DNA from: Xanthobacter flavus
GTDB taxonomy: Bacteria > Pseudomonadota > Alphaproteobacteria > Rhizobiales > Xanthobacteraceae
NCBI RefSeq assembly: GCF_017875275.1
Contig: NZ_JAGGML010000001.1
Location: 4,237,001 to 4,301,000, forward strand
Direction of reading: 5' to 3'
Length of the DNA: 64,000 nt
Position 1 is the stretch's first letter. The number at the start of each line of letters is the position of its first letter. Positions 14,243-28,840 of this stretch are shown one piece after another. The position numbers and the translations under genes were made by a program. The notes beneath the pieces were generated by a model that was not told the DNA's origin, searched no databases, and worked only from the letters and a program-made list of their open reading frames with translations.

Positions 14243-14260
14243 AATGGTGCCGGATGAGGG
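14243..14260 (-). repeat. Left copy of the 18-bp direct repeat matching the tRNA-Thr 3' end (candidate att site)
   Basis: AATGGTGCCGGATGAGGG occurs here and, identically and in the same orientation, at 28823-28840, where it is the last 16 bases of the tRNA-Thr(TGT) gene plus two flanking bases. Tyrosine recombinases commonly use tRNA 3' ends as core sites and leave the short copy at the far end of the inserted element. An 18-bp match at exactly this place is unlikely by chance. Confidence 0.75.
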
Positions 14261-14512
14261 CGCCTCAATTCTCACATATCTAGTTGAAAATAGTTATAAA
14301 TTTCAGTCCTATATCAAGTTGGTGCCAACACAAATGCCAACAAATCGGAGCGATGCTCCTCGATGGCACTATCCGGCGAACTGCCGGGATCTGGCGCGAA
14401 GGGACAGAACGACGGCCACTCAGGCCGCCTCCCATACCCGGTTCAAGATCCGCGCGGAGATTGCCTTGTTGTCCACAAGGGCAGTGCCGCCGGGACCGAC
14501 GGCCGGGCTCAC
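14261..14512. other. Accessory stretch with no recognised gene
   Basis: Several short open frames cross this region on both strands but none has a family resemblance or a good ribosome site. It has a short AT-rich part near 14280-14345. Confidence 0.4.
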
Positions 14513-14680
14513 CTAGCCCAGCGCTGCGAGCACCATCCCCGCCACGCCACAAGCCGCGAGTGTGGGAAGCATCCCGAGCCTGAGCCGGAACATGGCGATT
14601 ATCGCCATCGCGGAGAGGGCGGCCGCGCGCCAGTCGATGGAGGAGAGCACGGGCAGGTCTGGCCCGATGCCGCGCCAGTC
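14513..14680 (-). pseudogene. C-terminal fragment of a chromate transporter (ChrA, CHR family)
   Basis: The minus-strand frame ends SIDWRAAALSAMAIIAMFRL followed by a last hydrophobic helix and a stop at 14513. This is the usual end of CHR-family chromate transporters: a DWRA motif, then two final membrane helices. Only about 55 residues match; the sequence before it is unrelated. There is no upstream start in context. It is a leftover of a resistance gene on the island. Confidence 0.6.
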
Positions 14681-14874
14681 CAGCTCACCACCTGCCGGAA
14701 GACGACGTGGATTCGGGAAATATGCGGAGCCCATGTCGTCTTTCTTGGACGTGCGCCTCGCGAGATCGACCGCGAGCCATGCCCATGGCAGTAGGCCCCC
14801 ATCCAGTCGAGGCGCGCGGAATGCGATGGGGCGAGGCCGAGAGCGTGACGGGGTATCACGCAAATCTCGCCCCG
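14681..14874. other. Short gene-free stretch between the chrA fragment and the esterase
   Basis: No convincing gene is present. The minus-strand frame here is open to the chrA fragment but has no recognisable motif. Confidence 0.4.
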
Positions 14875-16125
14875 TCAGCGCCGAGGCCTAATCGCTGCCA
14901 GCCGCGTGCGCTCGGCGCGGCTGCTCTTCAGGAAGAAGCGCACCATTTCGCGGCTCGCGTCCGGCCCGTTCGGATCGGTAAAGGATCCCGACGGGCTGCC
15001 GCCGGACCAAGCATGACCGGCGCCGTGGAGCACCCAGTTTTCCAGCACCCCATTCCCCGCGGCATCGCTGTGGACTTCCCGGGTGTAAGCCACGCCGCCC
15101 GGAGACTGGCCGGAGGTGACCGTCGTCCGGAACTTCATTTCCCCCTGCGCCTGCGCGGCTGCCTGCGCCACCACCTGCGTGCCGTTCACCGGATGGACCG
15201 TCCTGTCGCCGTCACCGTGAAAGACAATGGTGGGCACGACGACCCCATCGCTTCGGTGCGCCGCGGGACTGCCGCCCTGGCGCATCGCCGCGAAGGCGGA
15301 AGGCATGTCGCGGGCGGCACCGCACGCCAGTCCGGAATGCACACCAATGGCGCGGAAGAGATCGGGATAGGTCGCGCCCATGATCGCTGCCGTCGCACCC
15401 CCGGCGGACAGGCCGGCGGCAAATACCCGGTCCGGGTCGACCGGGAACTCGTCCATGATCTGGCGCGCGATGCCGGCAATCAGCGAGGGCTCGCCCCGGT
15501 CGCGCTTCTGATCGCCCGCATTGAACCAGTTCCAGCAGCCGGAGGCGTTGGCATCATGGCTCTGCGCTGGATAAGCGACGATAAAGCCATGCTCCTCCGC
15601 CAGCTCGTTCATGCGCGTGCCGGCCGCGAAGTCGTCCGGGGACTGGGTGCAGCCGTGCAGCATCACCACGAGCGGCACCGCCTCACCTGCCAGGGTCCGG
15701 GGTACATAGAGTTTGTAGGATCGGCGGCCCGCCTGGTTGGCAAAACTGCGTTCCTCGAAGCTTGCACCTTCCGGCACCGGCACCTGCGTGGCCACGCGCG
15801 GTCTCCTCGCCTTGAGGCGGGCAGAGGGGCTGGCGTCAAGGACCAGATCCAGCATTCCGTCCAGCCAGGAGGCGGGCCGGGCGGCGACGTGGTCGACATG
15901 GACAGGGGCAGCCGTTGTGGCTGCAGGCGCAGTCCAGGCGCTGCCGGTTTCCGGCGAAGGCGGAACGAGGTCAACGATCGGTGTGCCCGCGTCCGCCTCG
16001 GCAGGCCGATCGGTGTCAGGGGAGTTGGAAAGGCCGTCACGCAGGACGGTCATGGCTTCTTCGAGCCGGCCCTGGCGGGTGAGGCGTGTGGCTTCCAACA
16101 CGTCGATCTTGAATTGTCTGGCCAT
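14875..16125 (-). CDS. Extracellular PHB-depolymerase-like esterase (alpha/beta hydrolase)
   Basis: The 416-residue protein belongs to the esterase PHB-depolymerase family. A variable N-terminal part of about 125 residues precedes the hydrolase fold. The fold shows the oxyanion region (LVVMLHGCTQSPDDFAAGT), the nucleophile elbow GLSAGG, a HGDGDRTVHP acid loop and a final GAGHAWSGG with the catalytic His. There is no clear signal peptide, so the location and true substrate (polyhydroxybutyrate, its oligomers or aryl esters) are open. The ATG at 16125 has GGAG before it; a GTG at 16140 is possible. It follows a ribbon-helix-helix gene on the same strand, an arrangement that I recall from other alphaproteobacteria. 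Confidence 0.85.
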   Translation of the reverse strand: MARQFKIDVLEATRLTRQGRLEEAMTVLRDGLSNSPDTDRPAEADAGTPIVDLVPPSPETGSAWTAPAATTAAPVHVDHVAARPASWLDGMLDLVLDASPSARLKARRPRVATQVPVPEGASFEERSFANQAGRRSYKLYVPRTLAGEAVPLVVMLHGCTQSPDDFAAGTRMNELAEEHGFIVAYPAQSHDANASGCWNWFNAGDQKRDRGEPSLIAGIARQIMDEFPVDPDRVFAAGLSAGGATAAIMGATYPDLFRAIGVHSGLACGAARDMPSAFAAMRQGGSPAAHRSDGVVVPTIVFHGDGDRTVHPVNGTQVVAQAAAQAQGEMKFRTTVTSGQSPGGVAYTREVHSDAAGNGVLENWVLHGAGHAWSGGSPSGSFTDPNGPDASREMVRFFLKSSRAERTRLAAIRPRR

Positions 16126-16218
16126 CTGGTGCGGCTCCACGAGTTCATTCGGACAAAGCGCAGGAGCCGGCCCTGCGGTGAAAGGCTGGAATTCTCCAGC
16201 ATTGGCGAGTTCAGGTCG

Positions 16219-16638
16219 TCAGCAGATCCGATCGGCCAGCGCCGCCTTGACACCCGCGCTGGCCTGAAGAGCCCCGAGAATCTGCAGAGAGGCGATGGTG
16301 GACCGCGCCAGCTCGGGCGAAACATCCTCCTCGATGACCGCCATACCGAGCACATGGATATGGAGCATCTCGCCGGAATTGTGCGCGGCCTCAAGATCCT
16401 TGCGGCTATAACGCCGCAGACCCAGGTCCAGCTGATGCCGGCTCAGCGATTTTTTCAGAGCCTCATCATGGCGTTCGATCTGATTGCGGATCGCGGTGCG
16501 GATGAAATCCGTGCGGTTGGAATAAAACCCTTCGCGCACCAGAAGGTCCACCTGGCCCAGGTCGACGTAACCAAGGTTGATGGTGATCTTCTCGCTCTCC
16601 GCCTGCCGCGGCCTGAGCTCCTGCACCTTGTGGGCCAT
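16219..16638 (-). CDS. CopG/ribbon-helix-helix family protein
   Basis: The 139-residue protein has a ribbon-helix-helix core near residues 15-55 (EKITINLGYVDLGQVDLLV, then GFYSNRTDFIRTAIRNQI), a dimeric DNA-binding fold. A second part (about 85-125) includes the motif LHIHVLGMAVIEEDVSPELA, whose role I do not know. It sits 93 bases upstream of the esterase on the same strand and probably regulates that gene or itself. The length is more than that of a simple antitoxin. Confidence 0.75.
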   Translation of the reverse strand: MAHKVQELRPRQAESEKITINLGYVDLGQVDLLVREGFYSNRTDFIRTAIRNQIERHDEALKKSLSRHQLDLGLRRYSRKDLEAAHNSGEMLHIHVLGMAVIEEDVSPELARSTIASLQILGALQASAGVKAALADRIC

Positions 16639-27932: not shown

Positions 27933-28236
27933 TGCGCGCTCCTTTCCGGAGGGCAGTTCTCAGACGAAGCGCGACGTTACTCGTTTTACTACAATGCGTC
28001 CAACTATATGTACGTTGATCGTCGTGTTTTGCTGTTCCGCTCAAGCTGCCTATCTCGAACTTCTGTTCACCAGTTGGGGTGCTGAAAGCGCCGCTGCAGC
28101 CCCGGTGGACAGCAAACCGCCTGCGACCGGTTCCTCGATGCGGGCCGAAGTGCTTCAGGCCATCTCAACCTCGCGGATCGCGCTCCCATGGCCCGCGTGA
28201 GGCGGACGAATACCCTAGCCCTTGATAGGCCCCAGG
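27933..28236. other. Accessory stretch with a possible small secreted ORF and the second dispersed repeat
   Basis: A plus-strand frame from an ATG at 27994 to 28200 begins with a hydrophobic signal-like segment (MRPTICTLIVVFCCSAQA) but lacks a ribosome site, so I do not call it a gene. Its end coincides with the dispersed repeat at 28143-28184. Confidence 0.35.
28143..28184. repeat. Imperfect dispersed repeat, copy 2
   Basis: This segment begins GGCCGAAGTGCTTCA and then CGCGGATCGCGC at nearly the same spacing as at 576-620. Differences between the blocks include third-codon changes in the AEVLQ...SRIA plus-strand frame, so the two may be tails of related genes. Confidence 0.4.
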
Positions 28237-28555
28237 TTAGGAGAGATGGGGCATCATGGCCAGCCCATGCCAGCCAAGCCAGGCGGTGTATAGCCCGACC
28301 ATCAAGATAAGCGCGGCGGATGCATAGGGAGCACGCCGGGCGAAGGCGCTGAAGCCGGACCACCTCCGCGAGATATGCCGGACGCTGAGCGCGGCGAGCA
28401 CGCCGGCCGATACCAGCGTGAGATCAAGGCCGATGCTGAAGCAAACCACCAGCACGAAGCCGATGCTCAACTGCTTGAGCTGCATGCAGATCAGCAGCAC
28501 GGTGATGGCCGCAGGGCATGGGATCAGGTGAACCACCCCTAGATTCCTGGACACC
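28237..28555 (-). pseudogene. C-terminal part of a NicO/RcnA-type nickel/cobalt transporter
   Basis: The minus-strand frame reads GVVHLIPCPAAITVLLICMQ, the conserved signature of the second half of NicO transporters, followed by two more membrane helices (IGFVLVVCFSIGLDLTLVSA and ASAALILMVGLYTAWLGWHG) and a stop at 28237. The first half, with its His-rich metal site, is missing. Upstream the reading passes into the integrase fragment, so a deletion joined the two. Confidence 0.7.
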
Positions 28556-28559
28556 TTCT

Positions 28560-28817
28560 TCCCTTCGGGCGGAGCACGGTGCGGATCGAGGGGAAGGCCA
28601 GCCTTCCCCGCCCTGTGATCTGGTGCAGCCGGTTGAGGATCGATACTGCCTGTCGGGGCAGGGGGCTCCGGTGCGGACGTCGCATCTTCATGCGCGCCGC
28701 CGGAATGGTCCATTCGGCCTTTTCCAGGTCGAACTCGCTCCATTCCGTCATCCTGATCTCGCCAGGCCTTGGAAAGAGGATCGGCATGAGCTGCAGCGCA
28801 GCTCTTGTCGTGGGTTG
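28560..28817 (-). pseudogene. Internal fragment of a P4-type tyrosine integrase
   Basis: The minus strand reads TTRAALQLMPILFPRPGEIR, then WSEFDLEKAEWTIPAARMK, then LPRQAVSILNRLHQITGRGR. This is the stretch of P4-like integrases that carries the first catalytic Arg (RPGE[LI]R) and the following beta strands. The N-terminal half, and the C-terminal HxLR and Tyr box, are missing. It abuts the candidate att site at the tRNA-Thr 3' end, exactly where the island integrase is expected. Confidence 0.8.
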
Positions 28818-28822
28818 GGGGG

Positions 28823-28840
28823 AATGGTGCCGGATGAGGG
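28823..28840 (-). repeat. Right copy of the 18-bp direct repeat, within the tRNA-Thr 3' end
   Basis: Identical to 14243-14260. It covers the acceptor 3' strand, CCA end and a little of the T arm of the tRNA-Thr gene. The tRNA remains whole on the other side. Confidence 0.75.

What the first reader, a model, noticed from the sequence alone, without database searches (positions are those of the whole stretch)
14243..28840. Genomic island of about 14.6 kb at tRNA-Thr, bounded by an 18-bp exact direct repeat
The last 16 bases of the tRNA-Thr gene plus two flanking bases recur exactly 14.6 kb away. A P4-type integrase fragment abuts the tRNA. The content between is mixed: complete genes plus many broken ones. 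Three independent signs agree.
Basis: partly seen in the sequence, partly recalled or inferred. Interest (0 to 1): 0.75.

Follow-up and report, generated by a model that had tools for sequence, protein, structure and literature searches.

The report
Decayed stacked island at tRNA-Thr
This is the worn-out remnant of a mobile DNA island lodged in a threonine tRNA gene of a Xanthobacter bacterium, in front of older inserted DNA; it holds a giant cyclic-glucan synthase gene whose family tree points to exchange between Xanthobacter species, so it is an ordinary kind of element with an unusual cargo.

Summary
The repeat is real: AATGGTGCCGGATGAGGG lies at 14243-14260 and 28823-28840, the latter at the 3' end of an intact tRNA-Thr(TGT). 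In 12 relatives compared, with this tRNA beside the same MFS gene, homology stops at the tRNA 3' end. Sequence right of 14243 is a distal arm that recurs beside att copies in G001 (86%) and, weakly, G011, so the ends look genuine. The interior is not a simple import: the integrase survives as about 85 residues; ChrA, NicO and a transglutaminase gene are fragments; the centre (PHB depolymerase, RHH, 2853-aa NdvB, CspA) is intact and lies at another locus in G001. NdvB relationships conflict with core genes, pointing to exchange within the genus. The left edge meets other inserted DNA: a further att copy lies 24.1 kb beyond, and in two relatives that older material lies 0.6-0.9 kb from tRNA-Thr, just behind an integrase remnant. 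No empty site for 14243 was found. Verdict: a decayed, stacked tRNA island, new member of a known kind. Whether the NdvB block arrived by integrase or later rearrangement is unsettled.

The parts
28825..28899 (-). tRNA-Thr (TGT), intact; integration target, 3' end at 28825
28823..28840 (.). att copy at the tRNA 3' end (18-bp direct repeat, proximal)
14243..14260 (.). att copy at the distal end (18-bp direct repeat)
14242..14712 (.). distal island arm: 86% over 472 aligned bases to the arm beside the tRNA-Thr att copy of G001, 74% over 219 to the own third att copy, 68% over 98 to G011; holds a pair of TGCCAAC-like repeats
   Evidence: role as integrase arm sites is inference
14513..14716 (-). 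C-terminal remnant of a chromate transporter (ChrA): 57 aa, 88% to the end of the ChrA-domain protein in G001's island
   Evidence: the remnant itself had no Pfam match, the G001 protein did
14875..16140 (-). PHB depolymerase-family esterase, intact
16219..16638 (-). ribbon-helix-helix regulator (RHH_8), intact
16725..25286 (-). NdvB-type cyclic beta-1,2-glucan synthase, 2853 aa, only match in the genome at E <= 1e-50
   Evidence: residues 61-2814 align to 8rf0, Cyclic beta-(1,2)-glucan synthase NdvB; no NCBIfam match
25390..25641 (-). small conserved ORF of the NdvB block
   Evidence: no Pfam family; similar ORFs beside NdvB in 5 of 5 relatives' loci listed
25999..26304 (-). small conserved ORF of the NdvB block
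   Evidence: no Pfam family; similar ORFs in 4 of 5 loci and in G009
26648..26857 (-). cold-shock protein (CspA/CspE type), intact
   Evidence: best models below their cut-offs
27200..27251 (+). N-terminal stub of a transglutaminase-like gene that is longer in relatives; homology stops at 27251
28237..28527 (-). C-terminal remnant of a NicO/RcnA-type nickel/cobalt efflux gene
28528..28564 (.). 37-bp stretch recurring at 7 listed places in 4 relatives (89-95%); insertion-sequence end by look (recalled)
28566..28820 (-). interior fragment of a tyrosine integrase (85 aa; matches residues 209-292 of a 383-aa homologue on a X. dioxanivorans plasmid)
   Evidence: the label P4-type is recalled
14069..14121 (.). 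copy of the last 53 nt of tRNA-His (88.7%), 122 bp outside the left att copy; probably a scar of another insertion

Best explanation
14243-28823 is the decayed remnant of a tyrosine-integrase (P4-type) genomic island that integrated by site-specific recombination into the 3' end of tRNA-Thr(TGT), rebuilding the tRNA at one end and leaving the 18-bp copy at the other (ends: shown by sequence and comparison; recombination: inferred from the family). It went in between the tRNA and older inserted DNA, which now lies further left and ends in a diverged att copy at about window -9886 (order of events inferred). The original island probably carried metal-resistance genes, of which ChrA and NicO stumps remain. 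Its body is now a block of PHB depolymerase, RHH regulator, NdvB and CspA; this block sits at different places in different species, and most likely came in as island cargo (not shown). With the integrase cut to about 85 residues the island should not excise by itself; only an integrase acting in trans, or homologous recombination, could move it (inferred). The likely benefit is envelope and osmotic-stress capacity from cyclic beta-1,2-glucan (inferred from the NdvB family).
For: Exact 18-bp repeat, rare in window and genome. In 12 relatives homology ends at the tRNA 3' end; among 13 genomes only 1 of 78 pairs (G012-G004) shares a stretch of 300 bp or more within the first 6 kb beyond the tRNA. 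The distal arm beside the left copy is shared with G001's tRNA-Thr att copy (86%), and the cores lean to each host's tRNA variant: GGGTGA in G001, GGTCGA against tRNA GGTTGA in G011. Integrase fragment beside the tRNA, 83% to a plasmid integrase; integrase remnants also lie beside tRNA-Thr in 3 of 12 relatives, G001, G009, G008. Stacking: third att copy; in G009 and G008 window 4866 to 716, or 427 to -1881, begins 0.6 and 0.9 kb from tRNA-Thr behind the integrase remnant. Cargo mobility: NdvB near-full in 7 of 14 genus genomes, one 123-aa piece, 6 without; different loci; NdvB relationships in conflict with RlmB and MFS. In X. aminoxidans the remnant of the block lies behind a related integrase fragment and a copy of the last 48 nt of tRNA-Thr(CGT).
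Against: No empty site for the left junction. Composition is not foreign. Of 12 relatives only 2 (G001, G011) have an att copy with at most 1 mismatch in the stretch held (up to 20 kb), 3 have one with 2 mismatches (G006, G014, G019) and 7 have none, G009 and G008 among them; 9 of 12 show no integrase there. The own integrase fragment is not alike in DNA to those beside tRNA-Thr in G001, G009 and G008. In G001 the block lies in a longer gene run (NhaA, transglutaminase, CspA, NdvB, RHH, PHB depolymerase, hydrolase) starting about 20 kb from a tRNA-Arg, with no integrase called between NhaA and the hydrolase. The RHH-PHB pair sits 8-18 kb left of tRNA-Thr in G002, G011 and G012, as if native there. 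The own and X. aminoxidans integrase fragments are only 72% alike in DNA while the neighbouring block is 96% alike, so they are not simply the same element.
Confidence: 0.6

Rival explanations
1. Composite scar: the two att copies and the end stumps (ChrA, NicO, integrase) are what is left of an island, and the PHB-RHH-NdvB-CspA block was put between them later by insertion-sequence or homologous recombination; the 14.6 kb never moved as one unit.
For: Breaks behind the PHB depolymerase stop codon (14712-14875) and inside the transglutaminase gene at 27251, neither at an att site. Multi-copy transposase DNA and swapped segments in the zone, e.g. 6208-13856 is backbone in G001 and G009. Same divergence as backbone to G001 (93.6% against 92.4-93%). 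RHH-PHB near tRNA-Thr in three relatives.
Against: In X. aminoxidans the block remnant also lies next to an integrase fragment and a tRNA-Thr end copy, which two independent accidents would have to explain; NdvB relationships point to exchange between species.
Confidence: 0.33
2. The 14243 copy is only an internal scar and the real single element is the 38.7 kb from about -9886 to 28823.
For: An att copy with a related arm lies at -9886.
Against: Its core carries a mismatch and its arm is 74% like that at 14243, so it is older or different; G009 and G008 show parts of the left DNA near tRNA-Thr without the 14.6 kb.
Confidence: 0.06
3. The repeat is chance and there is no island.
For: Composition inside equals the surroundings.
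Against: 0.07 matches expected with up to 3 mismatches; shared arm, integrase fragment and hypervariable site.
Confidence: 0.01

Closest known systems
tRNA-borne genomic islands with P4-type tyrosine integrases (recalled kind)
   Same: Integrase beside the tRNA 3' end reading away from it, tRNA kept whole, short direct repeat at the far end, stacking at one tRNA gene
   Different: Integrase reduced to an interior fragment; no conjugation or phage family among the ORFs searched; interior rearranged
Cyclic beta-1,2-glucan synthase NdvB (solved chain 8rf0_A)
   Same: Near full-length match, residues 61-2814 of 2853
   Different: Here between island ends and patchy in the genus
tRNA-Thr(TGT) island of G001 (closest relative found)
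   Same: Same distal arm and an att copy close to its own tRNA variant, 17.6 kb from tRNA-Thr
   Different: Different interior: ChrA and ChrB domain genes, the stretch matching window 585-4948 and other genes; its NdvB lies elsewhere
X. aminoxidans (G009) tRNA-Thr(CGT) site
   Same: Integrase fragment, then transglutaminase, CspA and small ORFs of the same block
   Different: No NdvB found; a prophage-like stretch of about 15 kb lies between tRNA and block

Membership tests
tRNA-integrated genomic island | Direct repeat of the tRNA 3' end at both edges | tested here: met
tRNA-integrated genomic island | Relatives keep the tRNA flank but have other DNA beyond its 3' end | tested here: met
   12 relatives compared; G003 also has a tRNA-Thr beside the MFS gene in a diverged form and was not in these comparisons
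tRNA-integrated genomic island | Empty site joining the left flank to the tRNA | tested here: inconclusive
   left flank 13857-14242 not present in 40 relatives beyond tRNA-like and short matches
tRNA-integrated genomic island | Integrase gene next to the tRNA | tested here: met
   present only as an interior fragment
P4-type (Arm-DNA-bind_3) integrase element | N-terminal arm-binding domain and full catalytic domain | tested here: not met
   residues 1-208 and 293-383 of the homologue have no counterpart beside the tRNA; the homologue has the domains
tRNA-integrated genomic island | Foreign composition | tested here: not met
   not needed for islands exchanged between close species
tRNA-integrated genomic island | Excision and circular form | not testable with these tools
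   needs PCR or reads
NdvB cyclic beta-1,2-glucan synthase | Full-length domain set (glycosyltransferase, glucoamylase-like, two GH94 parts) | tested here: met
   the glycosyltransferase Pfam match is below its cut-off (19 against 27 bits)
NdvB cyclic beta-1,2-glucan synthase | Makes cyclic glucan | not testable with these tools
   needs an assay

The most novel reading that the evidence does not exclude
The transglutaminase-CspA-NdvB-RHH-PHB depolymerase block is a mobile stress module of Xanthobacter that docks at threonine tRNA genes of both isoacceptors (TGT here, CGT in X. aminoxidans) through related integrases, so that the ability to make cyclic beta-1,2-glucan, usually thought of as a fixed envelope trait of these bacteria, is gained and lost horizontally.
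Probability: 0.35. Interest if true: 0.5.

Novelty: new member of a known kind. Interest (0 to 1): 0.35.

Why it matters
It shows one tRNA gene beyond which almost every compared genome has different DNA, with att copies or integrase remnants in 5 of 13 (own, G001, G008, G009, G011), and it points to cyclic-glucan synthase, a very large envelope enzyme, as something that can be exchanged and lost rather than a fixed core trait. The distal arm gives a handle for finding other islands of this family.

Tried and rejected
Composition as a sign of foreign origin: no difference. A plain empty site: not found. The idea that the DsbD segment 6208-13856 belongs to the same island: rejected, as it is backbone in G001 and G009. 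The idea that the region next to tRNA-Thr in G006 is the ancestral left neighbour: not supported, since the 8 of 8 other genomes searched hold most of it elsewhere, and proteins predicted left of tRNA-Thr in four loci of Azorhizobium, Aquabacter and Ancylobacter (and in G006) gave no match above 55% identity at E 1e-20 in the 24 compared loci and stretches (a recheck of two of these proteins shows that the search itself works). Literature: Xanthobacter with genomic island and tRNA (15 listed), Xanthobacter with integrase and tRNA-Thr (0), ndvB with cyclic glucan and horizontal gene transfer (12 held, 10 listed), X. autotrophicus with mobile genetic elements (23 held, 10 listed), island stacking terms (8 and 1 listed). 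Only listings and abstract starts were seen, no paper was opened; none listed appears from its title to describe this locus.
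Full report
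What was checked. The 18-bp repeat is exact at 14243-14260 and 28823-28840 and occurs nowhere else in the window even with three mismatches. The second copy is the 3' end of an intact tRNA-Thr(TGT) on the minus strand, 28825-28899. Across the 5,354,025-bp genome (window = 4,237,001-4,301,000 of its one contig) the 17-base core has two exact matches, one with a single mismatch at window coordinate about -9886, and four with two mismatches; the reversed control has none.

Right edge. Searching 28000-30800 in 41 genomes (own included; 37 with some match), 8 relatives align in one piece from the MFS gene to the tRNA and stop at window 28817-28825: G001, G002, G004, G006, G008, G009, G011 and G012; in G007, G013, G014 and G019 a separate tRNA piece stops at 28816-28823. 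These 12 have the tRNA next to the same MFS gene and other DNA beyond it. G003 also has a tRNA-Thr there, in a diverged form that the DNA search missed, and was not compared; in several more distant genomes tRNA and MFS gene lie apart or differently turned and were not used. Beyond the tRNA, within the first 6 kb of each of 13 genomes, 1 of 78 pairs (G012-G004) shares 300 bp or more; G013 and G008 had only 1.8 and 3.2 kb. With up to 20 kb as target G009-G001 and weakly G012-G002 and G004-G002 join, and with 40 kb of the own genome G009, G008 and a 402-bp transposase piece of G001. The site is hypervariable. Against a simple picture, only 2 of the 12 relatives (G001, G011) have an att copy with at most one mismatch in the stretch held, 3 more have one with two mismatches and 7 none; 3 of 12 have an integrase remnant near the tRNA and 9 none.

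Left edge. To the right of 14243 lie about 470 bp that are 86% identical to the sequence beside the att copy of G001, which is 17.6 kb from G001's own tRNA-Thr. The cores lean to the host's tRNA: GGATGA here, GGGTGA in G001, GGTCGA against a tRNA GGTTGA in G011. Four distal arms (two here, G001, G011) can be aligned and share a pair of TGCCAAC-like repeats at about the same distance from the core; that these are integrase arm sites is inference. The arm contains 57 residues that match the C-terminus of G001's ChrA-domain protein at 88%. To the left of 14243 no old chromosome was recognised: 122 bp away is a 53-nt copy of the tRNA-His 3' end, then a 7.65-kb DsbD and two-component segment (6208-13856) which is collinear backbone in G001 and G009 and stands in another context in G012, then multi-copy transposase DNA at about 4965-5360 (the homologous G001 gene is a transposase), then TonB-receptor and other genes down to the third att copy.

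Stacking. In X. aminoxidans (L008, G009) the tRNA-Thr end is followed after about 590 bp by window 4866 to 716, and later by -8627 to -9666. In G008 it is followed after about 860 bp by window 427 to -1881. In both, and in G001, an integrase remnant lies within 135-676 bp of the tRNA; these are not alike in DNA to the own fragment. So the older material is near the tRNA in kin, and in this genome 4.95-28.57 kb lies in between. The backbone shared with G001 on the left ends at -37256, 65-66 kb from the tRNA in both genomes. The order of insertion is inferred, and many segments in this zone are shuffled between the two genomes.

Content. Next to the tRNA, 28566-28820 matches residues 209-292 of a 383-aa integrase with arm-binding, central and catalytic domains on a X. 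dioxanivorans plasmid, 83% identical. The DNA likeness starts 5 bp from the att core, so residues 1-208 and 293-383 are missing. Beyond it are a 37-bp repeated stretch, a C-terminal NicO/RcnA fragment, about 1 kb without family matches (a weak 68% likeness to window 488-630), and a 5' stub of a transglutaminase-like gene that is longer in G001, G002, G003, G008 and G009 (Pfam tested for G001 only). Then come an intact CspA-type gene, small ORFs, NdvB, RHH_8 regulator and PHB depolymerase. NdvB aligns over residues 61-2814 with the solved NdvB 8rf0.

Where the block comes from. 14902-26996 is 93.6% identical to a 12.1-kb stretch of G001 that starts 20 kb from tRNA-Arg(ACG), in a run NhaA, transglutaminase, CspA, NdvB, RHH, PHB depolymerase, hydrolase. 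NdvB is near-full in 7 of 14 genus genomes (G003 split into two frames, G006 over two contigs), one 123-aa piece in G012, none in 6, of which G005 is 88% complete (E <= 1e-50). Among these it was found within the stretch next to tRNA-Thr only here. NdvB of G008 is 89.1% like G003 and 87.1% like this genome but 82.4% like G006 and 81.5% like G002, whereas its RlmB is 98.7% and 97.5% like those two and 83.4% and 85.9% like the former. The NdvB data reject G006+G008 (p-AU 1.65e-102), G002+G011 (0.00024) and G003+G019 (7.5e-76); the MFS data reject G002+G006 (0.002) but not G003+G008+G000+G001 (0.298). The 8-row MFS tree is poorly resolved (0 of 5 branches starred), and the groups were chosen after seeing the distances. 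So the NdvB gene has very probably been exchanged within the genus at least once; two core genes are a thin yardstick. In X. aminoxidans the remnant of the block (transglutaminase, CspA, small ORFs; 96% to this genome) lies behind an integrase fragment and an exact copy of the last 48 nt of tRNA-Thr(CGT); a 15.3-kb prophage-like stretch (3 of 5 proteins tested matched PHROGs: head protein, anti-repressor, integrase) lies between that copy and the real tRNA. The two integrase fragments are only 72% alike in DNA.

Reading. The ends are those of an integrase-made island; the island is very probably dead in cis and stacked on older inserted DNA. That the block was its cargo is the simplest reading of two tRNA-Thr sites with block and integrase together, but later insertion of the block between island ends is a serious rival, because the block's breakpoints are not at att sites and RHH-PHB lies 8-18 kb left of tRNA-Thr in G002, G011 and G012. 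Nothing here departs from the known kind of tRNA island; the cargo and the stacking are what a specialist would note.

Noticed in passing
window 14069-14121: 53-nt copy of the tRNA-His 3' end (88.7%) 122 bp left of the tRNA-Thr att copy, probably a scar of another insertion.
   Followed up: partly
window 6208-13856: DsbD and two-component gene segment that is collinear backbone in G001 and G009 but stands in other contexts here and in G012.
   Followed up: partly
L230 2650-18021 (G009:C58:32650-48021): Prophage-like stretch of about 15 kb with head, anti-repressor and integrase genes at tRNA-Thr(CGT) of X. aminoxidans, with an exact copy of the last 48 nt of the tRNA at its far side.
   Followed up: partly
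L211 1631-2113, L171 5544-5798, L213 2064-2560, L214 2114-2416: Pieces of the same distal arm or of its ChrA part lie near tRNA-Arg(ACG) in this genome and G001, tRNA-Lys(CTT) in G006 and tRNA-Ser(CGA) in this genome, so the island family may use several tRNA genes.
   Followed up: no
L180 3854-16353: In G003 NdvB is split into two frames and is followed by a different 453-aa arm-domain integrase; no tRNA was found in the 20 kb fetched.
   Followed up: no
L133 4737-18657: In G006 the tRNA-Thr end is followed, from about 1.5 kb on, by a region that lies elsewhere in 8 of 8 other genomes searched, a sign of rearrangement or misassembly at this site.
   Followed up: partly
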